Positions 7,579 through 58,818 of a DNA stretch of 64,000 bases are shown in pieces. This DNA is from a virus. The stretch is from positions 27,903 through 91,902 of the IMG/VR virus record IMGVR_UViG_3300047548_000496. One strand, 5' to 3'. The position numbers and the translations under genes were made by a program. The notes under the pieces were generated by a model that did no database searches, had not been told where the DNA came from, and worked only from the letters and a program-made list of their open reading frames with translations. The stretch's first letter is position 1, and every line of letters begins with the position of its first letter.

Positions 7579-7817
7579 AGAAAATCTACATGATGTATCA
7601 CACACCAAGAACAATAGAAGTTCTTAATTGGTTTTATGATACGTTCGGTGAACCACAAGAATGGAGTGCAATAGTATTGGAGCCTGTTCAATTGAAACAT
7701 GGTTATCAATGGGCTAATGGTAAACACCATGACGGTGACTGGGACGAATTTGATACGGTTCCTGTAATTTGGTGTACAGAAAAAGCGTTTATGATGTATT
7801 CTTTGAGGTGGTTATAA
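7569..7817 (+). CDS. small LRW-family protein, member 3 (82 aa)
   Basis: Contains the helix-FG-P element (IEVLNWFYDTFGEPQEWS), a loop with GKHHDGDWDEF, and the ending CTEKAFMMYSLRWL. Start ATG at 7569 inside the end of member 2. Function unknown; the same fold as its neighbours is expected. Confidence 0.72.
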   Translation: MGLKKIYMMYHTPRTIEVLNWFYDTFGEPQEWSAIVLEPVQLKHGYQWANGKHHDGDWDEFDTVPVIWCTEKAFMMYSLRWL

Positions 7818-8068
7818 TGGAACAAGGTAGCTTTACATACAAGACTGAAAAATATTACGGTAGCAAGAAAAATGTCCACACCATTTCTTGGAAGGGGAAG
7901 GGCGAAGTTGATAGCGCAGAGATTCAGAAATGGTGCATTGACAATTTCGGGCAACCTGGCTACCAAGAAGAACACGGTGAAGCACGATGGCTAGACCATA
8001 CTGATTTTGGTGAAATCTTTTTGTGTAAAGATGAAGACTTGACCTTCTTCTTACTCAAGTGGACATGA
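7817..8068 (+). CDS. small LRW-family protein, member 4 (83 aa)
   Basis: Starts at the ATG of a TAATG junction (7817); longer in-frame versions run through the preceding gene. Pattern: SAEIQKWCIDNFGQPGY, an acidic strand, then CKDEDLTFFLLKWT, with K in place of R in the terminal motif. Function unknown. Confidence 0.73.
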   Translation: MEQGSFTYKTEKYYGSKKNVHTISWKGKGEVDSAEIQKWCIDNFGQPGYQEEHGEARWLDHTDFGEIFLCKDEDLTFFLLKWT

Positions 8069-8298
8069 GAAGAATTCATTTTGAAGGCCCTACATGGCAT
8101 GACACCAAACCCGGTTGGCACGAAATCGAGTTGAACCTAAACGGGCAACCAAAACGCTATCGTGAAATTATAGAATGGCTGTATAATAGTATAGATAAGC
8201 CCGAAAGGCATTGTAGGTGGTTTGAAACTAGTGTAGGAATTAAAATCAAGTTTAGGTATGAACGGGACTATATTTTGGCAATGTTGAGGTGGAAATGA
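8065..8298 (+). CDS. small LRW-family protein, member 5 (77 aa)
   Basis: ATGA overlap with member 4 fixes the start at 8065. Contains YREIIEWLYNSIDKP, then RWFETSVGIKIKFRYERDY and the ending ILAMLRWK. Function unknown. Confidence 0.73.
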   Translation: MRRIHFEGPTWHDTKPGWHEIELNLNGQPKRYREIIEWLYNSIDKPERHCRWFETSVGIKIKFRYERDYILAMLRWK

Positions 8299-8648
8299 GA
8301 GTAAGCATTTGGTATCGCACTGAATTACAGCAACCTAGTAAGTCAGGTTACTATCTAAGTTATCGTGGATGGGGCATCGGTGGCAAGGCTGATGGTGATA
8401 GCGATTGGGGTTATGTCTATTACGATAAGAAAAAAAATCAATGGAGTGACTACAAAAGCGAGGATAGTCACTATGCTATTGTCTATTACTGGACTGATGC
8501 TACACCTGATGATTGGACAGACCAAGACCCTCCTAGCGTCAGCCTACACATACTAAAAGCACAACATAATGTAGCCCTGGAAGATGCGTGGAAAAAAGTT
8601 GTAGAAGCAATTGACCAATACAACATGATTAAAGAGTTGGTGAAATGA
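8295..8648 (+). CDS. DUF551-like small protein inside the array (117 aa)
   Basis: Starts at an ATGA junction (8295). It differs from its neighbours: P-S-K-S-G-Y-Y-L-S-Y-R-G, then VYYDKKKNQW, then YYWTDATPDDW. This order resembles the DUF551 type of short phage and enterobacterial proteins (P-x-x-G-Y-Y-L ... W ... V-x-x-W-x-P). The C-terminal 45 residues form a helix. Function unknown. Confidence 0.65.
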   Translation: MRVSIWYRTELQQPSKSGYYLSYRGWGIGGKADGDSDWGYVYYDKKKNQWSDYKSEDSHYAIVYYWTDATPDDWTDQDPPSVSLHILKAQHNVALEDAWKKVVEAIDQYNMIKELVK

Positions 8649-8947
8649 AACAAGGCGATATCATTAAACTTATTGAAGAAATTGCCGATGGGTTAGCAAA
8701 AAAGATTAAACATGATAAAGCAATGTTTGAGATAAAAACAAATACTAAGTATAAGTTCAGCCGTAACTGGTATCAAGCATATTTCGACCTTAAAGACTAT
8801 GATGCTGTAGATGAATGGTGTGAACAACAGTTTGGAAAGCATCCTAAGAATCCTGATGCTTGGAGTCGCTGGTGGCACAAGTTTGAGGACAGTATTCTGT
8901 TCCGTGATGAAAAGGACTATGTGTTGTTCACGTTGAGGTGGAGTTGA
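8645..8947 (+). CDS. small LRW-family protein, member 6 (100 aa)
   Basis: ATGA start at 8645. An N-terminal helix (IIKLIEEIADGLAKKIK) precedes the family domain: YDAVDEWCEQQFGKHPKN, AWSRWWHKFEDSILF, RDEKDYVLFTLRWS. It is one of the clearest family members. Function unknown. Confidence 0.74.
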   Translation: MKQGDIIKLIEEIADGLAKKIKHDKAMFEIKTNTKYKFSRNWYQAYFDLKDYDAVDEWCEQQFGKHPKNPDAWSRWWHKFEDSILFRDEKDYVLFTLRWS

Positions 8948-9225
8948 TGAAATTATTTTATAGTAGTGCTGGGGCAAGCAATCCTAGCTTTGTGTATAAA
9001 TTCAAAGTTAAAAAGTGTACAACTGAAATGTATGAGTGGGCTAGCAATTATCCCGAAAAAGGCCCCTTCAGCCGTTGGTATGTAGAATGGAATACTATGA
9101 AAATGGATAGCGGCAAAAATTACGATGTAATACAGATTGAACACAGCGAAGCAGCCAAAATATTCAAAATTGCATTCGCGGGTGAATATGAAGATATCAC
9201 TATGAAAGAATATAGGCTTGATTGA
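8947..9225 (+). CDS. small LRW-family-related protein, member 7 (92 aa)
   Basis: TGATG junction sets the start at 8947. The middle keeps TTEMYEWASNYPEKGPFSRW, like the helix and W-S-R-W of member 6, but the C-terminus has diverged (EAAKIFKIAF, then YRLD). It is either a relative that lost the LRW end or one extended past it. Confidence 0.62.
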   Translation: MKLFYSSAGASNPSFVYKFKVKKCTTEMYEWASNYPEKGPFSRWYVEWNTMKMDSGKNYDVIQIEHSEAAKIFKIAFAGEYEDITMKEYRLD

Positions 9226-9436
9226 AGTCAAACTGATAGATAAACTTCCTATTGAGTTTTTGGTCATTGTAAATGAACTCAAAGAAAAGGGATATGTTCA
9301 AGGCGTAGACTTTGACTTTGCCTATCATCCACCCAAATTTGATGACTTTTCAGGTGATGCAGTCTATAATAGATGTGTAATCTTTACTTTTTATAAAGAA
9401 GAATTAGCAACATGGTTCAGTCTAATATACCATTAA
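9218..9436 (+). CDS. small LRW-family-related protein, member 8 (72 aa)
   Basis: Probable TTG start at 9218, overlapping member 7 by 8 nt. IEFLVIVNELKEKGYVQG and the ending FTFYKEELATWFSLIYH follow the family pattern (strand, acidic residues, aromatic end) without LRW. Confidence is lowered by the rare start. Confidence 0.55.
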   Translation: MIEVKLIDKLPIEFLVIVNELKEKGYVQGVDFDFAYHPPKFDDFSGDAVYNRCVIFTFYKEELATWFSLIYH

Positions 9437-9687
9437 CAATAGATCAAGTAATCAAAGAGAAAGTCGATGAAATGCAAAAGGGTATCGACAATGATGTTAT
9501 GAGAGCCTGTTTAGTCGAAAGTGGCTGGACACAAGTAGAATTCTACTATACCAATAATAAACACGCAATTGATGTGCTAAATTGGATCGGTGACAATGTG
9601 AAAGAAAATCAGTGGTCACGGTTGAACAGTTACTTTGTATTCCGCAAGAAAAAAGATGCGGAGTGGTTCATGTTACGATGGCTATAA
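9412..9687 (+). CDS. small LRW-family protein, member 9 (91 aa)
   Basis: ATG at 9412 within the end of member 8. After a 45-residue helical lead comes HAIDVLNWIGDNVKENQWSR and YFVFRKKKDAEWFMLRWL, a clear family ending. Function unknown. Confidence 0.7.
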   Translation: MVQSNIPLTIDQVIKEKVDEMQKGIDNDVMRACLVESGWTQVEFYYTNNKHAIDVLNWIGDNVKENQWSRLNSYFVFRKKKDAEWFMLRWL

Positions 9688-9688
9688 A

Positions 9689-9910
9689 ATGGAATATACT
9701 ATAGTCGAAGATGGGTGTGACTGCTATCCTTGGCATGAAGTTTATGCTTTGTTGCCGCATAAAACTGTGACTGGTAAGAGAGTTTGGTTACAAAAAGTGT
9801 ATAAGCGTAAAGTGTGGGTTGTATGGGGCACAGGATTTCATATGGAACCAGAAGTGCAATATGCTACTGCATTTGATTTATTAGTTTATGACAACAAGTA
9901 TAATCCTTAA
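9689..9910 (+). CDS. small basic protein, paralogue of the 34002 gene (73 aa)
   Basis: Starts at the ATG 2 nt after the stop of member 9. It does not belong to the LRW family. It shares PW-E, a K-R-x-W-L-x-K-x-V-Y-x-R core and a Y-x-x-x-F-D-L-L end with the 64-aa protein at 34002-34196, so the two are paralogues. The core looks like a small beta sheet. Function unknown. Confidence 0.65.
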   Translation: MEYTIVEDGCDCYPWHEVYALLPHKTVTGKRVWLQKVYKRKVWVVWGTGFHMEPEVQYATAFDLLVYDNKYNP

Positions 9911-10109
9911 ACATGGGTTAGGTGCCCGTGAAGAACAATGGTTAGCAAAGAATGTGGGGCCTAGAATGCATTATATTCACAATAGCATAGGTGGACAGGG
10001 CTGGATAGCTAAACGTGAATGGACTCCTGGAATGGTTAGTAGAGAATGGGTTCTGACATTTGAAGATGAACGCTATGCTACATTTTTTAGATTGATGTTT
10101 CCAGAATGA
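9888..10109 (+). CDS. small LRW-family-related protein, member 10 (73 aa)
   Basis: ATG at 9888 overlaps the gene before by 23 nt. It contains EEQWLAKNVGP and the ending WVLTFEDERYATFFRLMFPE, which matches the family's strand, acidic pair and F-x-L ending with LMF for LRW. Function unknown. Confidence 0.62.
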   Translation: MTTSIILKHGLGAREEQWLAKNVGPRMHYIHNSIGGQGWIAKREWTPGMVSREWVLTFEDERYATFFRLMFPE

Positions 10110-10372
10110 ATATATCTAAAGACTTTCAGGATTATGATGACGATGGTCCAGAAATGGAATTTCGAAAAAACCGCTGGAACTATTGGTCTGCTCTTAAACA
10201 AGCACGCCAAGAATATATGAAAACAAAAATAGAGTTTGATGCGTATGAGTTTGAAGATTGGCTCGAAGCAATATATGGTATAAAGATGAACATCGTCAAC
10301 GGTAATATCACAGATGGTTATAAAATTATGGATGAAGCCAAATACACATTTTTTCTATTGAAATTCCAATGA
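10106..10372 (+). CDS. small LRW-family-related protein, member 11 (88 aa)
   Basis: ATGA junction. A 40-residue charged lead is followed by AYEFEDWLEAIYGIKM and MDEAKYTFFLLKFQ, the family helix and a variant LKF ending. Function unknown. Confidence 0.66.
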   Translation: MNISKDFQDYDDDGPEMEFRKNRWNYWSALKQARQEYMKTKIEFDAYEFEDWLEAIYGIKMNIVNGNITDGYKIMDEAKYTFFLLKFQ

Positions 10373-10713
10373 ATAACAATCATCCATTTAAGATCACACA
10401 GTACGATAGATTTATCACTGTGACATGGCCTAATATGAATGATGTCAGGGAAAAAGTTACTAAATTAAAATTAATAGAGGCAGCATTTCAACAATCCAAA
10501 GCAGTTGAAGTAGGCTTTGTGTTAGAACTCAACAATAAAGAATATGATATCATGTGGATCAATTCTTTTCTTAGTTTGACTGAAAATGATTATGTGAATT
10601 ATATACAAGATATGTATGTTATTAAGGGTGTTGCATATAGAGAGAAAACAGATGCAGAGAAGTTCTACAATTGGTTAGAAGGAAAGTATATATGGCAATT
10701 ACTCAAGGAATAA
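10369..10713 (+). CDS. small array protein, possible LRW-family relative, member 12 (114 aa)
   Basis: ATGA junction at 10369. KITQYDRFITVTWPN and a long helix precede MYVIKGVAYREKTDAEKFYNWL, which recalls the strand, acidic residues and aromatic helix of the family, with an extra 12 residues after it. Family membership is uncertain. Confidence 0.58.
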   Translation: MNNNHPFKITQYDRFITVTWPNMNDVREKVTKLKLIEAAFQQSKAVEVGFVLELNNKEYDIMWINSFLSLTENDYVNYIQDMYVIKGVAYREKTDAEKFYNWLEGKYIWQLLKE

Positions 10714-10970
10714 ACGGAACATTCGTTTCATACAGCGAAATGGATGACCCAATCTATTTTCGTAAATTCAAAAAGACCGTTCCACTTGACGGATCATGGG
10801 AAACCCGTGTATTCTATGAGATAACTAAGTTTCCATTGGGTCGCAAAGAAACAGAACAATGGCTAGAAGACCATTATGGTAAGTTGAAATATAGCGACAG
10901 TTGGTGGAAAACATTTAACGGTATATGTATGAATGAAAAGATATACATACACTACAAATTATTGGAGTAA
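10692..10970 (+). CDS. small LRW-family-related protein, member 13 (92 aa)
   Basis: ATG at 10692, 8 nt after AGAAGGA; a longer upstream frame exists but lacks a ribosome site. RKETEQWLEDHYGKLKYSD and WWKTFNGICMNEKIYIHYKL follow the family plan. It is the last gene of the array and is followed 2 nt later by the exonuclease gene. Confidence 0.62.
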   Translation: MAITQGINGTFVSYSEMDDPIYFRKFKKTVPLDGSWETRVFYEITKFPLGRKETEQWLEDHYGKLKYSDSWWKTFNGICMNEKIYIHYKLLE

Positions 10971-10972
10971 GT

Positions 10973-11533
10973 ATGGCGGCGGATATAATGATTGATATTG
11001 AAAGTTTGAACACAACACCTGATTGTGTTATTCTATCTATCGGCGCGGTTAGATTTGATCCTCGAGGCAACGGTGTTGTTGAACGATTAGAACTTAAACC
11101 TACAGTCGAGGATCAAACTGAAATATATAATAGGAGTATTAACGATGATACAATCAGATGGTGGTCAGAACAAAATCCTGCTGCCCTTGAAGAAGCATTC
11201 AGCGAAGAAGGTAGAATCCCATTTGCCGAATGTATGGAGATCCTATACAAGTTTTGTTGGAATCGCCGTGCTGTGTGGAGTAATGGTGCCCCCTTCGATT
11301 TGGTCGTTATGGAACATGCTTGGAGACAAACAAGCGATAAACCTAATCCCATCCCCTGGCCTTTCTGGACAATGCGAGACACAAGAACACTGTGGGAAAT
11401 CGCAGGAGTCAAACTCAAAGACGGAGGACACGTTACAAGTCACAAGGCTGTAGAAGATGCTGAACGACAAGCCATCGTTGTTCAACAAGCATACATGAAA
11501 TTAATGAAAGCAGGATTGGCAGAATCACGATGA
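10973..11533 (+). CDS. DEDD 3'-5' exonuclease, DexA / Rv2179c-like
   Basis: 186 aa. Exo I is MIDIES with the D-x-E pair near residues 8-10, followed by SIGAVRFDPRG. Exo II is NGAPFDLVVMEHAW, and exo III is SHKAVEDAERQA with the H and D. This is the RNase-H-fold exonuclease group that contains T4 DexA and the Rv2179c-like exoribonucleases. It degrades DNA or RNA from the 3' end with two metal ions. Ribosome site GGAG lies 6 nt upstream. It ends in an ATGA overlap with a zinc-binding protein gene. Confidence 0.88.
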   Translation: MAADIMIDIESLNTTPDCVILSIGAVRFDPRGNGVVERLELKPTVEDQTEIYNRSINDDTIRWWSEQNPAALEEAFSEEGRIPFAECMEILYKFCWNRRAVWSNGAPFDLVVMEHAWRQTSDKPNPIPWPFWTMRDTRTLWEIAGVKLKDGGHVTSHKAVEDAERQAIVVQQAYMKLMKAGLAESR

Positions 11534-11736
11534 ATGTCGAAAGAGAAAACACTTGGAGAACATTGCAAGGTCTTAAACCTATACAATCTTGGAAATGTAG
11601 ACTTGGATGGCATCGTTGGACTAATTATGAAATTCACGATAGGTCACATGATTTTATGGGACCAGTTGCAAGATGCCATTGTGCTGATTGCGGATTACCT
11701 AGAATAGAGCCTCCCTACACAAAGAGTAAAAAATGA
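11530..11736 (+). CDS. small zinc-binding protein (68 aa)
   Basis: Contains W-K-C-R-L-G-W-H-R-W near residues 21-30 and C-H-C-A-D-C-G near 48-54, which together supply C/H and CxxC zinc ligands. The layout resembles DUF1660-type phage proteins (C-x-x-G-H-x-W ... C-x-x-C-G). Function unknown. It overlaps both neighbours by ATGA. Confidence 0.7.
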   Translation: MNVERENTWRTLQGLKPIQSWKCRLGWHRWTNYEIHDRSHDFMGPVARCHCADCGLPRIEPPYTKSKK

Positions 11737-12305
11737 AACTAGATGCTGATATTGACATTGACTTTGGTGACAGAGATAAGTTGTTGAAACTTATTGCTCA
11801 TACATCTGCGGCTATGCGTAATGTTAAACCCATGCGTAAACATAACACGGGTGTCTATGTTACGGACATTCCGTATGATTCAGTAAATGACATGGCTAGT
11901 ATTGATTACACCGAGGCTGAAAAACGTGGTTATTTTAAACTAGACTTGTTAAATGTTCATGTTTACGAGCAAGTACGTGATGAACAGCATTTAGTTGAAT
12001 TGATGCAAGAACCAGACTGGTCTAAATTAAATGATAAAGAATTTGTTGAAAAACTGATTCACTTAGCGAATCATTATAATTCTATACAAAAAATGCCTGA
12101 ACCCATTGATAGTATCCCTAGACTAGCAATGTTCTTAGCCGCTATTCGTCCAGCTAAAAAGCATTTGATTGGATTACCCTGGAAAGAAGTCGCAAAGACT
12201 ATATGGGATAAAGGTGATGATGGGTACAGTTTTAAGCGTTCGCATGCCGTTGCTTACGCACATTTGGTAGTAGTTCATATGAATCTACTTACGGCATCCT
12301 CTTAA
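11733..12305 (+). CDS. mini DnaE-like protein: catalytic palm part of Pol III alpha
   Basis: 190 aa that read as a condensed C-terminal palm of bacterial DnaE. It opens with DADIDIDFGDRDKLLKLI, matching the DnaE P-D-x-D-x-D-F motif with the first two catalytic Asp (around D8 and D10). Then come HNTGVYV (DnaE H-x-G-G-V-x-I), G-Y-F-K-L-D-L-L-N with the third Asp (D71), A-A-I-R-P (DnaE A-L-x-R-P-G-P) and SFKRSHAVAYA (168-176; DnaE F-N-K-S-H-x-x-A-Y-A). The finger inserts, beta-binding and OB regions are missing. The preceding DnaE motif GRGS is in another gene at 55654. Activity is inferred, not shown. Confidence 0.8.
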   Translation: MKLDADIDIDFGDRDKLLKLIAHTSAAMRNVKPMRKHNTGVYVTDIPYDSVNDMASIDYTEAEKRGYFKLDLLNVHVYEQVRDEQHLVELMQEPDWSKLNDKEFVEKLIHLANHYNSIQKMPEPIDSIPRLAMFLAAIRPAKKHLIGLPWKEVAKTIWDKGDDGYSFKRSHAVAYAHLVVVHMNLLTASS

Positions 12306-12669
12306 CTAACGTAATGCTCTTGCGTTTGGTCCTACGCTTGTTTAGTTCACTGATACTACATATAGGACCATGAATAATAGTCAGACTTTTATTGTTAAAA
12401 GTCCTTAAATAGGGCTTGAAAATACTCCATTCATCTTTCAGGAATAGGTTTATGGGGATAAGTCTATTACTTTCCCACCACCAAATATCTCCTAATTCTA
12501 GGAATTTTTCTTTAATTAGAGGGTCTACTATGGCCCCATAATCGTATATTGTAGTGACAACATCATCCCTATTCTGTACTATACCCACGTAATCTTGGTT
12601 TGAGTGCGAACATACTGTTATGAACGGGTGATTTTCACTTAATTTTTTAAAAAATTCGTTGTGTATCAT
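12289..12669 (-). CDS. conserved phage protein, reverse strand (126 aa)
   Basis: Conserved-looking protein with SNQDYVGIVQNR, then KFLELGDIWWWESNRLIPI, FLKDEWSIFKPYLRTF and a basic end KRRTKRKSITLVKR. I believe relatives occur in other T4-like phages but know no function. A late promoter (GATAAATA, 12689-12696) lies inside the longest open frame, so the ATG at 12669 is chosen over one at 12711. It is convergent with and overlaps the DnaE-like gene by 17 nt. Confidence 0.68.
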   Translation of the reverse strand: MIHNEFFKKLSENHPFITVCSHSNQDYVGIVQNRDDVVTTIYDYGAIVDPLIKEKFLELGDIWWWESNRLIPINLFLKDEWSIFKPYLRTFNNKSLTIIHGPICSISELNKRRTKRKSITLVKRMP

Positions 12670-12688
12670 TATTATTTTTAGACCGAAA

Positions 12689-12696
12689 TATTTATC
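12689..12696 (-). promoter_or_regulatory. T4-type late promoter
   Basis: GATAAATA on the reverse strand, 19 nt before the ATG at 12669. It is divergent from the late promoter at 12722. Confidence 0.55.
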
Positions 12697-12721
12697 ATTG
12701 GACACAACCATAATATATTTT

Positions 12722-13562: not shown

Positions 13563-14540
13563 ATGTTTGATATTCTGTCTTTAATTCCAGGCAAGAAAAA
13601 ACTTACCCACGGTGGCTGGCATAGCTTTAATGCTATCTGCTGTCACCATCGTGGGCACACTGCTGACAAACGAGGTCGCGGTGGTATTAAGTTTGACGGA
13701 CAAACAAATTGGTCATATCACTGCTTTAATTGTAACTTCAAAACAGGCTTTGTGTTGGGTAGAAGCATTAGTAGAAATACGAGACAATTATTGTCTTGGT
13801 GCGGTGTAGATGAATCGCAAATTGGCAAGTGGAGTTTAGAAAGTTTACAACAAAAAGATTTCTTGGATTTCACACTGCCCAAGAAAAAAGAAAAGAAGAT
13901 AAAATTCAAAGACCATCAATTGCCCGAAAATGCTGTGTTGATTGATGAAAATAACCCATCGCACAAAATATATATAGACTATCTCAGGGCCAGAGGCATA
14001 AGTAATACTGAATATCCTTTCATGGTTACTACTGATGACGTTGGTCGAATGGGTAACCGCATCATTATACCATACACTTATAAAAATAAGATTGTAGGAC
14101 ATACAAGTAGATTCTTAGATAATAAAATACCCAAATACATTAACGAACAACAGCAAGGTTATGTGTTTGGTTATGATTTTCAATTACCCGATCAAAGTGT
14201 TACTATATTGGTCGAAGGTATCTTTGACGCATTGAGTTTAGGTTGTTGTGCATTGACACACAATTCAATCAATGAAGGTCAAGCAGAATTACTAGCACAA
14301 TTAAATAGACAGATTATTTTTGTCCCAGACCGAGACAAATCAGGACTTGAAACTTGTGAGAGAGCTATTCAATTAGGTTATAGTGTCAGCATCCCACATT
14401 GGGATAAAGACATAAAAGATGTAAATGATGCCGTTGTAAGATATGGTAGACTACCAACTTTACTAAGTATATTAGAGTCTGCTACAATGAGCAAAATTAA
14501 AATAGAATTGAGGAAGAAACAAATTGAAAAAGGACTATGA
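13563..14540 (+). CDS. DNA primase, gp61-like
   Basis: 325 aa (T4 gp61 342 aa). The N-terminal zinc-binding domain uses C26, C27/H28 and C54-x2-C57. The Toprim core has LVEGIFDA with E218 and FVPDRDKSG with D256 and D258. It makes RNA primers on the lagging strand and works with the gp41 helicase encoded next. The start is the ATG at 13563 with the promoter 6 nt upstream and no ribosome site. It overlaps the helicase gene by 17 nt. Confidence 0.94.
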   Translation: MFDILSLIPGKKKLTHGGWHSFNAICCHHRGHTADKRGRGGIKFDGQTNWSYHCFNCNFKTGFVLGRSISRNTRQLLSWCGVDESQIGKWSLESLQQKDFLDFTLPKKKEKKIKFKDHQLPENAVLIDENNPSHKIYIDYLRARGISNTEYPFMVTTDDVGRMGNRIIIPYTYKNKIVGHTSRFLDNKIPKYINEQQQGYVFGYDFQLPDQSVTILVEGIFDALSLGCCALTHNSINEGQAELLAQLNRQIIFVPDRDKSGLETCERAIQLGYSVSIPHWDKDIKDVNDAVVRYGRLPTLLSILESATMSKIKIELRKKQIEKGL

Positions 14541-15975
14541 AGATAATAGTTACCCAGTTGAGAAGCAAAAATATTTTTTACGAATGATGTTAACTAACGC
14601 AGAGTTGTTTACCCGTGTTACTAACATCTATAATGCAATCAATTTTGATAAATCAATCAGACCTGTTGCTGAGTTTATCAAACACCACGCTGACGAATAC
14701 AAGATACTACCTGAGTTTGAACAAGTAGAAGCCGTTACAGGGATTAAACTTGATCCTATTCAAAACTTAAATCAAGGACATTATGATTGGTTTTTGGAAC
14801 AGTTTGAAAAATTTACTAAACGACAAGAACTAGAACGTGCGATTTTAAAGAGTGCTGACTTGCTTGAAAAAGGTGAATATGATCCTGTTGAAAAATTAAT
14901 CAAAGATGCGGTACAAATAAGTCTACAAAAAGACATGGGTATGGATTACTTTGCTGATCCACGTGGTCGGTTGTTAGCATTGAAATCTAATAATGGTCAA
15001 GTCAGTACAGGTTGGCCTAGCATGGACAAGAAACTATATGGTGGTTTTAACCGCGGTGAACTGCAAATCTTTGCAGGAGGCTCAGGTTCTGGTAAGAGTT
15101 TGTTCATGCAAAACTTAGCAGTTAATTGGACTAGTATGGGACTGAACGGAGTATATATCACACTAGAACTTAGTGAAGGCTTGTGTTCTATGCGTATTGA
15201 CTCCATGACCACTGAAACATCTAGTCGTGAAATTTTCAAATCAATTGATGATATTGAAATGAAAATTAAAATGATGAGTAAGAAGTATGGTAAGTTCCGT
15301 GTCAAATATATGCCGGCACAAAGTAATGTCAACGATATCAGAGCATATTGTAAAGAACTACAGATCCAAACAGGTATGAATATTGACTTTTTGTGTATTG
15401 ACTATTTGGACTTATTGATGCCAGTATCTGCAAAAGTCAGTCCGAGTGATTTGTTTGTTAAAGACAAATATGTTGCAGAAGAAGTGCGTAACTTAGCAAA
15501 AGAGTTAAATGTATTATTAGTAACAGCATCGCAGTTGAATCGTAGTGCTGTAGAGGAGATTGAATTTGACCACAGTCATATTAGTGGCGGTATTAGTAAA
15601 ATCAATACTGCGGACAATGTATTTGGAATCTTTACATCCAGGTCTATGCGTGAGCGCGGGCAGTATCAATTGCAATTGATGAAAACTCGTAGTAGTAGTG
15701 GTGTAGGACAAAAGATTGAACTTGAATTTAATGTAGAAACATTAAGGATTACCGATCCTGATCCTGAAGGTTACGGGGAACAACAATCTAAGTTTAAACC
15801 TAGTCCCAGCCCCAATGACATTATGAATAGGTTAAAGCCCCAATCTACAATAGTTTCTACTGAACCTATAGTTGACCAGAATACAGGAGAAGTCTTGGAA
15901 CCGTCAAACAAGAAGGTTGTTGTGGACGTTCAGGGATCAAAACTCAAGACTTTATTGAATAGTTTAAAGAAATAA
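14524..15975 (+). CDS. replicative DNA helicase, gp41-like (DnaB family)
   Basis: 483 aa. Walker A is GGSGSGKS (185-192) after FNRGELQIFA, as in RecA-fold DnaB helicases. DnaB-type motifs follow: VYITLELSEG, FLCIDYLDLL (Walker B) and VTASQLNRSA. The unusual TTG start at 14524 is supported by GAGGAAG at 14510-14516, 7 nt upstream. It unwinds the parental duplex 5'-3' on the lagging strand. It is co-transcribed with primase; the C-terminal 60 residues are disordered. Confidence 0.95.
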   Translation: MKKDYEDNSYPVEKQKYFLRMMLTNAELFTRVTNIYNAINFDKSIRPVAEFIKHHADEYKILPEFEQVEAVTGIKLDPIQNLNQGHYDWFLEQFEKFTKRQELERAILKSADLLEKGEYDPVEKLIKDAVQISLQKDMGMDYFADPRGRLLALKSNNGQVSTGWPSMDKKLYGGFNRGELQIFAGGSGSGKSLFMQNLAVNWTSMGLNGVYITLELSEGLCSMRIDSMTTETSSREIFKSIDDIEMKIKMMSKKYGKFRVKYMPAQSNVNDIRAYCKELQIQTGMNIDFLCIDYLDLLMPVSAKVSPSDLFVKDKYVAEEVRNLAKELNVLLVTASQLNRSAVEEIEFDHSHISGGISKINTADNVFGIFTSRSMRERGQYQLQLMKTRSSSGVGQKIELEFNVETLRITDPDPEGYGEQQSKFKPSPSPNDIMNRLKPQSTIVSTEPIVDQNTGEVLEPSNKKVVVDVQGSKLKTLLNSLKK

Positions 15976-16002: not shown

Positions 16003-16257
16003 ATGCAAAAACAAACTCGCAGTCTTTTAGAGGAATTAGAGGCCATTGGTAATAATCGTGATACCGCTCACATTATTGAGAGCAGGGGTCACAACATTAT
16101 TACTAGCGCCATCAATTTAATTGAAATGATTAATAAATACTATTCTCCTGATCAGGCTGAGATTTTAGAAAGAAAATTATTGAGTGCCATTAAAAGCAAG
16201 GATCAATCTAGATTTTCTAAGTCTATAAAAAAGAATAGTAAAAATGAACCCATCTGA
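16003..16257 (+). CDS. conserved hypothetical late protein (84 aa)
   Basis: All-helical small protein: E-S-R-G-H-N-I-I-T-S-A-I-N-L-I-E-M-I, then E-I-L-E-R-K-L-L-S-A-I-K-S and a lysine-rich tail. The pattern recurs in T4-like aquatic phages near head and tail genes, but the role is unknown. It overlaps the next gene by 14 nt. No ribosome site is seen, and the late promoter is only 7 nt away. Confidence 0.7.
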   Translation: MQKQTRSLLEELEAIGNNRDTAHIIESRGHNIITSAINLIEMINKYYSPDQAEILERKLLSAIKSKDQSRFSKSIKKNSKNEPI

Positions 16258-17389
16258 TGAACTATCATTGCTAAAATCTAAGATTGAAGAATTAAGTCTT
16301 TTTGAAGGTAAAGGTCATTTAGACCATCCTGAGGATTTGATATTTTTAGATGGAACTCAGGGCGCTAATCATGCTATACAGGCATCAGTGGCCACAGTTA
16401 ATAATCCACAAACAGTTACTATCAAATGGGATGGATATCCTGCATTAATTTTTGGTCGTGGAACTAATGGTAAGTTCACTATAATGGACAAACACATGTT
16501 CAATAAAAAAGATTTATCAGGAAGACAAGTCTTTAGTCCAGAACAGTTTGTTCAGTATGACCGAGCACGTGGAGTAGACCGCACTGGATTACATCAAATA
16601 ATTAACGAAATATGGCCTGGTCTAGAAAAGTCAGACCGTAGCAAAGGGTACTATTGGGGTGACCTACTATTCAGTCAGCCACTGCAAGACCAAAACGGTA
16701 TGTATAAGTTTAGAGCCAATCCCAATGGTATCACATATACCGTAGATACAGATAGTGAAGTAGGGCAGTTATTTAAAGGAAAGCAAGCGGGAATAGTTGT
16801 TCATCAATTTATTCCTGCTACAGCAGTGACCACTGACGAGGCAACTCCTTTAGATGGCACTATAGGTAGTTTAAAAAATAATAGCAATGTTGCTATTGTT
16901 CCTGCCAAGATGCCTATAACTCCTAAACTAAAGTTGAATAACAGTTTAGTCAAAAAAGCACAAGCTGCTATTGCTAAGTACGGCAAAGATGTGGATCAGA
17001 TGCTAAATACTGCTCCACAGGCAGCATCTGCCTTTCGTACTATGTTTACTACCTACATCAATAAAAAGATTGTTGCAGGAGATTTGAACAATTTAGTAGA
17101 TGGTTTTATGGAATTCTTCAATAGCCGTCCAATGACCGAAACTATGCGTCAAAAGTTAACACAACATTTACAAGCTAACAAAGCAGGACTAATAGGGGCA
17201 TTCACCATTTGGGCTGCACTATATCAATTAAAAATGTCTATTGTTGACCAATTAAACAGAGCAGCAGAGGCTAGCCCCGTTAAGGGTTATTTACAAGACG
17301 GCACACAAACTCAAGAAGGTTTTGTCAGTCAAGGGTTAAAATTCGTTGATAGAATGGGTTTTTCACGCCAAAATCTTGCAGGCCGATAG
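16244..17389 (+). CDS. KxDG-motif protein, ligase/nucleotidyltransferase-like
   Basis: 381 aa. TIKWDGYPALIFGRG has K61-W-D63-G64, the signature of the covalent nucleotidyltransferase superfamily (ATP/NAD ligases and capping enzymes). It is followed by YYWGDLLF (motif III-like) and QAGIVVHQF near 183-188 (motif IV-like, with A in place of the usual E before G). The C-terminal 150 residues are helical. T4-like cyanophages carry proteins of this type with no known role. The start overlaps the 84-aa gene. Whether it still transfers AMP is uncertain. Confidence 0.65.
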   Translation: MNPSDELSLLKSKIEELSLFEGKGHLDHPEDLIFLDGTQGANHAIQASVATVNNPQTVTIKWDGYPALIFGRGTNGKFTIMDKHMFNKKDLSGRQVFSPEQFVQYDRARGVDRTGLHQIINEIWPGLEKSDRSKGYYWGDLLFSQPLQDQNGMYKFRANPNGITYTVDTDSEVGQLFKGKQAGIVVHQFIPATAVTTDEATPLDGTIGSLKNNSNVAIVPAKMPITPKLKLNNSLVKKAQAAIAKYGKDVDQMLNTAPQAASAFRTMFTTYINKKIVAGDLNNLVDGFMEFFNSRPMTETMRQKLTQHLQANKAGLIGAFTIWAALYQLKMSIVDQLNRAAEASPVKGYLQDGTQTQEGFVSQGLKFVDRMGFSRQNLAGR

Positions 17390-55653: not shown

Positions 55654-56160
55654 ATGAGAACTGACATATACGGGCAACAAATCTATGATGAAATGGAGCT
55701 ATGCTTACTGTATCTGCAGGATCCCTCACGTAAACTAAAAAAAGTTTTCGTAGAAAAAGAAATCAAGTTTGACGATACCCTACAACTACAAAACATCCCC
55801 GAACTTATAAAATACAACAGTAACAACATTTCTATAGAAGAATTTGACACTATAAATCAAAATAATTGGTTTATGCCCGAAGAATATAAATCAATGGACA
55901 TAGCCAAATTTGTATTAGACCAATGCAAAAATGAAGCAGAATTGCAAAGGGCAGGCGAAGAACTGTTGTTGTTTCAAGAAAGGAACATGTTTACATTGTT
56001 GTGCTACTTAAAATATTTGGTAGATACAATGCGTAAAAATAATATTGTCTGGGGTGTCGGGCGAGGATCGAGTGTTGCTAGTTTCGTATTATTTTTGTTG
56101 GGGGTACACCGTATAAATAGTTTGTATTACGACTTGTCTATCGCTGAATTCTTAAAATAA
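55654..56160 (+). CDS. mini DnaE-like protein: GRGS part of Pol III alpha
   Basis: 168 aa. The C-terminal half reads like DnaE just before its catalytic motif: ELLLFQERNMFTLLCYLKYL, then N-I-V-W-G-V-G-R-G-S-S-V-A-S-F (GRGS at 136-139), LFLLGVHRINSLYYDLSIAE and F-L-K at the end. Bacterial DnaE has V-G-P-G-R-G-S-A-A-G-S-L, then D-P-L-x-Y-x-L-x-F-E-R-F-L. The protein stops just where DnaE continues to P-D-x-D-x-D-F, which begins the protein encoded at 11733. The N-terminal 95 residues resemble neither PHP nor another known domain. It has its own leaderless-type early promoter. Confidence 0.82.
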   Translation: MRTDIYGQQIYDEMELCLLYLQDPSRKLKKVFVEKEIKFDDTLQLQNIPELIKYNSNNISIEEFDTINQNNWFMPEEYKSMDIAKFVLDQCKNEAELQRAGEELLLFQERNMFTLLCYLKYLVDTMRKNNIVWGVGRGSSVASFVLFLLGVHRINSLYYDLSIAEFLK

Positions 56161-56888: not shown

Positions 56889-57211
56889 TGAAATGGTTTT
56901 ATAGATGGTTGGCTAGCAAGATTCAAGACAGTCAATATGCTGACGAGGAAGCACAAAATATCGGACTAATAATTGGTTCAAATAAAGTAAATAGAGTACG
57001 CAAAACTACCACCGTCCGTGAAAGTGATGAACTTGGCTCTGAACCAATTGTATTCAAAATGTTCAAAGCAAGTGGTGGCTGGGCTATTGAGTTCAGACAT
57101 TATGATAACAGAAATGACAGGGTAGATACCAATCTTTATGTTGTCAATGATGAAGAAGAACTTGGTAGTCATATTTCTAAAATTATTACTATGGAGGCAT
57201 TAAAAAGATGA
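56885..57211 (+). CDS. conserved hypothetical protein (108 aa)
   Basis: MMKWFYRWLASKIQDSQYAD, then an alpha/beta body (EPIVFKMFKASGGWAIEFRH, Y-D-N-R-N-D-R-V-D-T-N-L-Y-V-V). The amphipathic Trp-rich N-terminus could bind membranes or a partner. No known family. It overlaps the co-chaperonin gene and couples by ATGA to the Bax-inhibitor gene. Confidence 0.68.
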   Translation: MMKWFYRWLASKIQDSQYADEEAQNIGLIIGSNKVNRVRKTTTVRESDELGSEPIVFKMFKASGGWAIEFRHYDNRNDRVDTNLYVVNDEEELGSHISKIITMEALKR

Positions 57212-57894
57212 GTTATTCAGATACATTAGTATATCGTAGTGCGGCTCAAATCAATGAAGCAATGAGTCGTGTGTATGGCTACATGGGACTTGCTACATTA
57301 GTTAGTCTGTTTGTAAGCTATGTTGTAGGTTCTAGTCCAGAACTAGTACAATTTTTCTTTACAGGCTGGATGCGCTATGTAACTATTTTTTTACCATTGG
57401 TGGCAGTATTCCCAATTACCATTGCTTTGAACAGTAACCCACCAAAAGAAATGGCATTATTCATGCTAGTTCTTTTTGCTGGTATAATGGGCTTGAGTTT
57501 TGCAGTAATTTTTGCAGTTTATACAATGGCAAGCATTGTTAGTGCATTTATGGGTTCAGCAGTATTGTTTGGAACTATGAGCTTTTATGGTTATTTTACC
57601 AAACAAAGTTTAGACAGTGTGGGCAAATTCTTATTTGTAGGCTTGATTGCAGTGGTAATTGCTAGTATAATTAACGTCTTTGTGGGTAGTACCGTAGCAC
57701 AAATGGTAATTTCAGCAATTGCAATTATTGTATTCTTGGGACTTACTGCATACGATACACAAAAAATCCGTGAACAATTAATGGATTCTAAGGAGTCAAC
57801 TGTTGCAGAAGTATCTGGAGCATTGACATTATACCTAGATTTTATTAATATATTCTTGTCGTTGTTACAACTTTTTGGCAATAAGAAAGATTAA
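57208..57894 (+). CDS. Bax inhibitor-1 family membrane protein
   Basis: 228 aa with seven hydrophobic segments and short loops. The N-terminus S-R-V-Y-G-Y-M-G-L-A-T is the family start (x-K-V-Y-x-L-x-x). F-F-x-Y-F-T-K and T-A-Y-D-T-Q-K-I match the bacterial YccA/YbhL type, and the end LYLDFINIFLSLLQLFG is typical. In bacteria YccA slows the FtsH protease; BI-1 proteins also act as pH-sensitive calcium leaks. In an operon with co-chaperonin and gp44. A role in holding back host membrane proteolysis is inference. Confidence 0.92.
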   Translation: MSYSDTLVYRSAAQINEAMSRVYGYMGLATLVSLFVSYVVGSSPELVQFFFTGWMRYVTIFLPLVAVFPITIALNSNPPKEMALFMLVLFAGIMGLSFAVIFAVYTMASIVSAFMGSAVLFGTMSFYGYFTKQSLDSVGKFLFVGLIAVVIASIINVFVGSTVAQMVISAIAIIVFLGLTAYDTQKIREQLMDSKESTVAEVSGALTLYLDFINIFLSLLQLFGNKKD

Positions 57895-58818
57895 ATGAAG
57901 AATCAACTTTGGGTAGAAAAGTATAGGCCCGCTTCGGTAGACGAATATGTTTTTGTCGATGATCGTCAACGAGAGCAAGTCGCACAATGGATTAAAGACG
58001 GGTCTATACCCAATCTATTATTCAGCGGGGACCCTGGCACTGGTAAAACTACACTAGCTAAAGTTCTAATTAAAGAATTAGGTGTAGAAGATTATGATGT
58101 GATGGAAATCAACGCAAGTCGTGATAACGGCGTTGACTACATCAGGTTCAAAATTGAGGGCTTTGTGCAAACTATGCCTTTCGGTAAGTTCAAAGTGGTT
58201 TTGTTAGACGAGGCAGATTATCTGTCCCAGCCCGGTCAAGCTATCTTGCGTGGATTGATAGAATCATATTCTGACACCGCACGATTCATATTGACTTGTA
58301 ATTATGACTACAAAATCATCCCTGCATTAAAATCTCGCTGTCATAATATGCATATTGCAAAAACTGATATGACAGAATTCACTGCAAGGGCGGCAACTGT
58401 ATTAGTTAACGAGAATGTAGAATTTGATTTAGATACACTGGATAACTATATTCGTGCCACATACCCGGATTTGCGTAAATGTTTAAATCAACTTCAAGTT
58501 AACAGCAATACAGGTAAGTTGTTATCTGCACAAGCACAAGGTTCTAGTGAACATGAATTATTGTTAGAGGCAACACAATTGTTTAAAGCTGGAAAAATTC
58601 TTGAAGGAAGACAACAGTTAATGCAATATATCGCACTTTATCCTACACGAATTGAGGATACATATAGGTGGATGTACGACAATTTAGATTTGTGGGGCAA
58701 AGATCAGGAAAAGAAAGATGCAAGCATTATCATTATACGAAATGGTCTTGCGAATCTTCCATTAGTTGGAATCCCCGAAATTAGCATGGCAGCAACATTA
58801 GTGGAGTTAACAAGTTGA
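57895..58818 (+). CDS. clamp-loader large subunit, gp44-like
   Basis: 307 aa (T4 gp44 319 aa). W-V-E-K-Y-R-P start; Walker A GDPGTGKTT (45-53); Walker B LLDEAD (103-108); L-T-C-N-Y sensor 1; A-L-K-S-R-C arginine finger. This AAA+ ATPase opens the sliding clamp together with gp62. The partner gene is about 52 kb away. It starts at the codon next to the Bax-inhibitor stop, so the two are co-translated. Confidence 0.95.
   Translation: MKNQLWVEKYRPASVDEYVFVDDRQREQVAQWIKDGSIPNLLFSGDPGTGKTTLAKVLIKELGVEDYDVMEINASRDNGVDYIRFKIEGFVQTMPFGKFKVVLLDEADYLSQPGQAILRGLIESYSDTARFILTCNYDYKIIPALKSRCHNMHIAKTDMTEFTARAATVLVNENVEFDLDTLDNYIRATYPDLRKCLNQLQVNSNTGKLLSAQAQGSSEHELLLEATQLFKAGKILEGRQQLMQYIALYPTRIEDTYRWMYDNLDLWGKDQEKKDASIIIIRNGLANLPLVGIPEISMAATLVELTS

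What the first reader, a model, noticed from the sequence alone, without database searches (positions are those of the whole stretch)
11733..12305. Second half of the split replicase keeps all three catalytic Asp of DnaE
The 190-aa protein begins with D-I-D-I-D-F (first two Asp), has K-L-D-L-L-N (third Asp, D71) and ends with the F-K-R-S-H-A-V-A-Y-A motif of the DnaE fingers. The large finger and C-terminal regions are gone. Keeping every catalytic residue in so short a protein implies selection for metal binding or polymerisation. It is encoded next to a DexA-like exonuclease, which could serve as proofreader.
Basis: partly seen in the sequence, partly recalled or inferred. Interest (0 to 1): 0.9.

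Follow-up and report, generated by a model that had tools for sequence, protein, structure and literature searches.

The report
Split minimal DnaE-like phage polymerase half
This small gene in a jumbo phage encodes the catalytic half of a stripped-down bacterial-type DNA polymerase whose other half lies 44 kb away; the split enzyme was described in related phages in 2021, but I found no report that anyone has tested what it does.

Summary
Window 11733-12305 encodes a 190-aa protein (B) that is a real C-family (DnaE/PolC) palm-plus-fingers fragment. It has all three catalytic aspartates, and these are invariant in 198 of 198 distinct homologues.

AlphaFold2 models B confidently (pLDDT 93.7). 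It aligns along nearly its whole length (181-187 of 190 residues) to Pol III alpha 458-836 (Taq) or 399-779 (E. coli). Its partner A (55654-56160) aligns to E. coli 279-393, so together they rebuild one palm and a reduced fingers domain. The PHP, thumb, mid-fingers YQEQ/RRAMGKK motifs, beta-binding and C-terminal domains are absent. Both genes are under purifying selection and occur once each in all eight isolate genomes checked with both models. A family B polymerase is encoded on a longer contig of the same phage.

Iyer et al. 2021 (PMC7824862) already described this split minimal Pol III alpha in jumbo phages, so the window is a new member of a known kind. I found no report of a biochemical test. 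Most likely A and B assemble into an accessory DNA polymerase.

The parts
11733..12305 (+). B half: C-family palm part 2 plus reduced fingers, 190 aa; catalytic D6, D8 (=E. coli D401, D403), D71 (=D555), K69 (=K553), H37 (=H511), R139-P140 (=R639-P640), F167..H171 (=F756..H760)
   Evidence: phrog_11778 E 9.5e-60; 198/198 invariance; E. coli mapping; AF2 pLDDT 93.7; aligns over 1-190 to Pol III alpha
55654..56160 (+). A half: C-family palm part 1 with the GRGS nucleotide-binding motif (G136-R-G-S-S140; G136-S139 = E. coli G361-S364), 168 aa; its C-terminus matches E. coli residue 393
   Evidence: PF07733 E 2e-9; phrog_11127 E 1.3e-38; AF2 pLDDT 88.8; residues 69-168 align to E. coli 2hnh/5fkv 277-393 and PolC, Z up to 10.5
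12289..12711 (-). Conserved convergent neighbour of unknown function (phrog_11637) whose 3' end overlaps that of B; part of the syntenic block, function unknown
   Evidence: phrog_11637 E 3.9e-31; found on the - strand downstream of B in 241 of 247 loci with enough flank
13563..14540 (+). DNA primase (phrog_47, Toprim), syntenic with B
   Evidence: downstream of B in 70/70 loci with enough flank
14524..15975 (+). DnaB/gp41-like replicative helicase, syntenic with B
   Evidence: 53/53 loci with enough flank
57895..58818 (+). gp44/RFC-like clamp loader, near A
   Evidence: phrog_168 E 1.1e-71; the same neighbourhood of A in Paride and 121Q
10973..11533 (+). DexA/Rv2179c-like DEDDh exonuclease upstream of B; a possible but unproven functional partner
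   Evidence: phrog_255 E 6.4e-40, PF16473 E 1.3e-31; present near B in 112/135 close relatives, absent there in isolate phages

Best explanation
B is one of two subunits of a phage-specific, minimal C-family DNA polymerase. A supplies the GRGS loop that grips the incoming nucleotide's phosphates. B supplies the three metal-binding aspartates (D6, D8, D71), the catalytic lysine (K69) and a cut-down fingers element. The two chains dock non-covalently along the palm sheet, where DnaE runs from residue 393 to 397, and rebuild one active site. Having no thumb, PHP, clamp-binding or tau-binding domain of its own, the enzyme is probably distributive. It most likely does short DNA synthesis (gap filling, repair or lesion bypass, or part of one strand) beside the phage's family B replicase, clamp loader and primase-helicase. 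Shown: homology, residue conservation, fold, complementarity of the two halves, co-occurrence, purifying selection. Inferred: physical assembly, catalytic activity, cellular role.
For: All catalytic and nucleotide-binding motif residues are invariant across 198 distinct B homologues, and A's GRGSS is invariant across its alignments. The A and B models align to contiguous segments of the same solved chains: E. coli 2hnh, A 279-393 and B 399-779; 5lew, A 305-413 and B 416-806; Taq 4iqj_C, A 296-455 and B 458-836. The split point is fixed: A ends 2 residues after F166 in 50/53 sequences and B begins 5 residues before D6 in 110/132. A and B occur once each, in distant genes, in all eight isolate genomes searched with both models (Paride, 121Q, Atu_ph07, SCTP-2, Vibrio 2.275.O, RaK2, GAP32, Phosso). 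Purifying selection acts on both, with median dN/dS of 0.11 (A) and 0.14 (B). B sits with primase and helicase, A with the clamp loader. Family B polymerase is present in 18 of 22 records, including G001, the longer contig with identical A and B. Iyer et al. reached the same reading independently.
Against: No complex was modelled and no biochemistry was found in the papers searched. The conserved mid-fingers motifs of DnaE (E. coli GIILYQEQ and RRAMGKK, between R639 and F756) and the thumb are absent, so template-directed synthesis is not assured. Sequence-only evidence for B is weak outside phages: no Pfam match for the window protein, no solved structure by profile, hhalign probability 30% to E. 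coli DnaE. The claim for B therefore rests on motifs and fold.
Confidence: 0.65

Rival explanations
1. A and B assemble into a catalytically active nucleotidyltransferase that is not a template-directed DNA polymerase, for example a terminal nucleotide-adding or end-processing enzyme, having lost the thumb and mid-fingers needed to hold template and primer.
For: The catalytic triad, K69 and GRGS are retained, while the thumb (D401 to H511 shrinks from 110 to 31 residues) and the YQEQ/RRAMGKK stretch (R639 to F756 shrinks from 117 to 28) are lost. The phage already has a family B polymerase.
Against: The fingers motifs nearest the template and nucleotide (RPxK and F-K-[KR]-[SAP]-H) stay invariant or nearly so, and both genes lie in replication gene blocks.
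Confidence: 0.15
2. The pair is a non-catalytic metal- or dNTP-binding regulator, or a mimic of host DnaE that interferes with the host Pol III holoenzyme.
For: The proteins are small and lack most polymerase domains. Conservation of binding residues alone does not prove catalysis.
Against: A binding-only role would not be expected to keep all three metal-ligand aspartates plus the catalytic lysine unchanged in 198/198 sequences. The DnaE regions that contact tau, clamp and epsilon are absent, so there is little surface to mimic holoenzyme contacts.
Confidence: 0.12
3. B works alone or with another partner (for example the neighbouring exonuclease or the phrog_11637 protein), and A has a separate job.
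For: A and B are encoded far apart (44 kb in G001, 180 kb or more in Atu_ph07 and Phosso), each in its own gene block. One 349-kb contig (G011) has A but no detected B.
Against: The halves are exactly complementary on solved structures and co-occur in every isolate genome searched. G011 is a metagenomic contig of unknown completeness.
Confidence: 0.06
4. The genes are decaying remnants of a former full-length phage DnaE.
For: They look like fragments of DnaE, and an earlier genome paper called A's homologue 'truncated' (PMC5259590).
Against: Uniform precise ends, single-copy presence in divergent phages, invariant active-site residues and low dN/dS.
Confidence: 0.02

Closest known systems
Split minimal DNA polymerase III alpha of 'group 2.2' jumbo phages (Iyer et al. 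2021, PMC7824862); phrog_11127 + phrog_11778
   Same: Two distant genes, an N-terminal NTP-binding half and a C-terminal Mg2+/template-binding half, no other Pol III domains, and a family B polymerase in the same genome. Homologues of B in isolate phages are 39-48% identical to the window protein.
   Different: The window's phage is an uncultured relative whose B is distinct from those of the isolates. It lacks the DnaQ-like epsilon (phrog_192) on its known contigs and instead has a DexA-like exonuclease near B.
Bacterial DnaE (Pol III alpha), e.g. E. coli, Taq, mycobacterial
   Same: Palm fold, D401/D403/D555 triad, K553, GRGS, H511, R639-P640 and FNKSH-type motif.
   Different: No PHP, thumb, YQEQ/RRAMGKK, beta-binding or C-terminal domains; split into two chains; 166 residues of B replace E. 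coli 401-760.
PolC (Gram-positive C-family replicase)
   Same: Same palm; A aligns to PolC at Z up to 10.5 and B at Z 6.8.
   Different: As for DnaE; no fused exonuclease or OB domain.
Cyanobacterial split DnaE with split intein (recalled, not tested by sequence)
   Same: A C-family alpha subunit encoded by two separate genes.
   Different: The split point differs (E. coli 393/397 here, versus just before the FNKSH motif in cyanobacteria, from memory). There are no intein sequences; both proteins have short precise ends at the junction.

Membership tests
Phage split minimal Pol III alpha (Iyer et al. 2021) | Separate C-terminal Mg2+/template-binding protein with catalytic Asp residues | tested here: met
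   B: phrog_11778 E 9.5e-60; triad invariant in 198/198; fold match
Phage split minimal Pol III alpha (Iyer et al. 2021) | Separate N-terminal NTP-binding protein encoded by a distant gene | tested here: met
   A at 55654-56160, 44 kb from B; PF07733 and phrog_11127; fold match
Phage split minimal Pol III alpha (Iyer et al. 2021) | Accompanied by a family B DNA polymerase | tested here: met
   PF00136 matches at G001:137645-138925, on the 139-kb contig with identical A and B; G000 itself is a fragment without it
Phage split minimal Pol III alpha (Iyer et al. 2021) | No other Pol III alpha domains encoded elsewhere | tested here: met
   phrog_405 (1190 positions) matches in 22 records fall only in the A and B regions, apart from one weak 27-position match in Phosso (E 0.01); short diverged pieces could be missed and many records are fragments
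Phage split minimal Pol III alpha (Iyer et al. 2021) | Jumbo phage genome (>200 kb) | tested here: inconclusive
   The window's own contigs are 92 and 139 kb fragments; relatives reach 490-525 kb
Cellular DnaE/PolC replicative alpha subunit | Catalytic triad plus GRGS nucleotide-binding motif in a Pol beta-like palm | tested here: met
   Across A and B together
Cellular DnaE/PolC replicative alpha subunit | N-terminal PHP domain | tested here: not met
   No match in A or B and none to positions 1-314 of phrog_405 in 22 records
Cellular DnaE/PolC replicative alpha subunit | Thumb domain and mid-fingers YQEQ/RRAMGKK motifs | tested here: not met
   D401-H511 spans 110 residues in E. coli and 31 in B; R639-F756 spans 117 and 28 (B coordinates)
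Cellular DnaE/PolC replicative alpha subunit | beta-clamp-binding, OB and tau-binding C-terminal domains | tested here: not met
   B ends just after the FNKSH-type helix, matching E. coli 779; no phrog_405 match beyond about position 818 in any record
Split-intein DnaE | Intein halves at the split junction | tested here: not met
   A ends 2 residues after F166 in 50/53 and B starts 5 residues before D6 in 110/132
Active DNA polymerase | Template-directed dNTP incorporation by the A+B complex | not testable with these tools
   Needs purified proteins; no complex prediction is available here

The most novel reading that the evidence does not exclude
A and B form an unusually small C-family polymerase: an active, thumbless, two-chain enzyme that works beside a family B replicase. 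It would show that the palm and a stub of fingers are enough for template-directed synthesis by the Pol III fold, and would be a candidate for an early or highly reduced state of the bacterial replicase.
Probability: 0.45. Interest if true: 0.75.

Novelty: new member of a known kind. Interest (0 to 1): 0.42.

Why it matters
If A and B reconstitute an active enzyme, they would define the minimal catalytic core of the main bacterial replicase and could explain why these large phages keep two unrelated polymerase families. The residue map (D6, D8, D71, K69; GRGS in A) and the exact split point make that directly testable. The pairing itself has been in print since 2021, so the value here is the sharper test, not the discovery.

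Tried and rejected
Chance motif or spurious ORF: rejected (198/198 conservation, dN/dS, E 9.5e-60).

Pseudogene: rejected.

Split intein or trans-splicing: rejected, with no extra sequence at the junction.

A third gene carrying the missing fingers, PHP or C-terminal domains: searched with phrog_405 in 22 records and not found; a short diverged piece could still be missed.

Sequence-only link of B to cellular DnaE: weak (no Pfam hit; PDB profile search gave only an unrelated coiled coil; hhalign 30%), so structure was used instead.

DexA-like exonuclease as an obligatory partner: not supported, because it is not beside B in any isolate phage. The DnaQ-like epsilon (phrog_192) of most isolates was not found on the window phage's contigs, which are incomplete.

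The B scan seeded with the Vibrio phage protein returned no relative.

Modelling the A-B complex was not possible with the tools.

Full report
Observation. It matches phrog_11778 'DNA polymerase' with E 9.5e-60. The partner protein at 55654-56160 (A, 168 aa) matches PF07733, the Pol III alpha NTPase domain (E 2e-9), and phrog_11127 (E 1.3e-38).

Conservation. 198 distinct full-length B sequences were gathered from IMG/VR and phage records and aligned. D6, D8, D10, H37, G40, K69, D71, R139, P140, K142, H171 and Y175 are the same in all 198. For A, the G-x-G-R-G-S-S motif is invariant or nearly so in every alignment made. Pairwise Nei-Gojobori dN/dS for pairs with dS 0.05-1 has a median of 0.11 for A and 0.14 for B. 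This is an active-site signature under strong purifying selection.

Residue numbering. In E. coli DnaE the motifs start at P400 (PDFDVDF), H511 (HAGG), K553 (KFDFLG), R639 (RPGP) and F756 (FNKSH). From established knowledge, the E. coli catalytic residues are D401, D403 and D555. Aligning D-x-D-x-D without gaps gives D6=D401, D8=D403, D10=D405 and D71=D555. The mutants to test are therefore D6, D8 and D71, not D8, D10 and D71.

What is kept and what is lost. E. coli 401-760 (360 residues) corresponds to B 6-171 (166 residues). The D401-H511 stretch, which holds the thumb, shrinks from 110 to 31 residues. R639-F756, which holds GIILYQEQ and RRAMGKK, shrinks from 117 to 28.

Fold. AlphaFold2 from a 132-sequence alignment gives B with mean pLDDT 93.7 and pTM 0.82, and A from 53 sequences with 88.8 and 0.66. 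VIA-align places B residues 1-190 on Taq Pol III alpha 458-836 (Z 9.3, 185 aligned, rmsd 4.6), on the chain of 5lew 416-806 (Z 9.2) and on E. coli 399-779 (Z 8.6, 181 aligned, rmsd 5.0). PolC follows at Z 6.8, and the best unrelated chain has 3.5. A residues 77-168 align to PolC at Z 10.5 (rmsd 2.8) and residues 72-168 to E. coli 279-393 at Z 8.8; the best unrelated chain has 2.6. Foldseek alone ranks Pol III alpha first for both but with modest E-values, and A residues 1-70 were not placed on any known fold. The two halves cover adjacent stretches of the same chains and meet between E. coli residues 393 and 397.

Precise split. A ends two residues after F166 in 50 of 53 sequences, and B begins five residues before D6 in 110 of 132. 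There is no intein sequence, so any joining must be non-covalent.

Genome context. A and B are single genes in all eight isolate genomes searched with both models: Paride, 121Q, Atu_ph07 (as G019), SCTP-2, Vibrio 2.275.O, RaK2, GAP32 and Phosso. They are about 30 kb to more than 200 kb apart. B lies upstream of primase (70/70 loci with enough flank) and DnaB-type helicase (53/53), and converges on an antisense gene of unknown function, phrog_11637 (241/247) (for the family). A lies near the gp44-type clamp loader. A family B polymerase is present in 18 of 22 records, including G001, the 139-kb contig with identical A and B. No further Pol III alpha piece was convincingly found.

The neighbouring exonuclease. 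The DEDDh protein at 10973-11533 (PF16473, E 1.3e-31) is found near B in 112 of 135 relatives with enough flank, but not beside B in any of the isolate phages. Several isolate phages instead carry a DnaQ-like epsilon (phrog_192), about 5 kb upstream of B in 121Q, RaK2, GAP32 and the Vibrio phage; it was not found on the window phage's contigs. A proofreading link is possible but untested.

Comparison with what is known. Iyer et al. [quoted passage not shown] They proposed that it may cooperate in synthesis of one strand or in repair. The CBB genome paper had noted A's homologue as a truncated 172-aa DnaE (PMC5259590). The window is therefore a new member of that kind. Added here: the corrected residue map, invariance across 198 sequences, the exact split point, independent structural placement of both halves, and evidence that the thumb and mid-fingers motifs are lost.

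Most likely mechanism. A and B dock to rebuild one C-family active site and carry out short, distributive DNA synthesis beside the family B replicase. Homology, conservation, fold and complementarity are shown; assembly, activity and role are inferred. The loss of thumb and mid-fingers leaves room for a non-templated nucleotidyltransferase or a binding-only role.

Limits. No complex was predicted and no experiment was found in the papers searched. The window's genome is fragmentary, and most metagenomic records have unknown completeness.

Noticed in passing
L087:4950-5525 (Atu_ph07, NC_042013 FDI40_gp074): The annotated start of the Atu_ph07 homologue is placed about 27 codons too late (locus 5031 instead of about 4950), so the deposited protein lacks the DIDIDF motif with two of the three catalytic aspartates although the DNA encodes it.
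   Followed up: partly
window 12289-12711 (-): A small antisense gene (phrog_11637, unknown function) converges on and overlaps the 3' end of B; it is kept on the opposite strand in 241 of 247 relatives, including distant isolates, while the genes around it run the other way.
   Followed up: partly
window 7769-10970 (+): A run of about a dozen short, overlapping ORFs (70-120 aa). Several show weak mutual similarity (best E 6e-6) and a shared C-terminal F-x-L-[RK]-[WF] ending, so they may be a tandem family of diverged paralogues of unknown function.
   Followed up: partly
window 57208-57894 (+): A Bax inhibitor-1 family membrane protein (PF01027, E 8e-54) is encoded between A and the clamp loader gene.
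   Followed up: no
window 11530-11736 (+): A 68-aa protein with several spaced cysteines (possible zinc ribbon) lies between the exonuclease and B, its stop overlapping B's start codon; it is found in only 8 of 248 relatives.
   Followed up: partly
window 16244-17389 (+): A 381-aa protein of unknown function matches DUF6267 (PF19782, E 4e-39).
   Followed up: no
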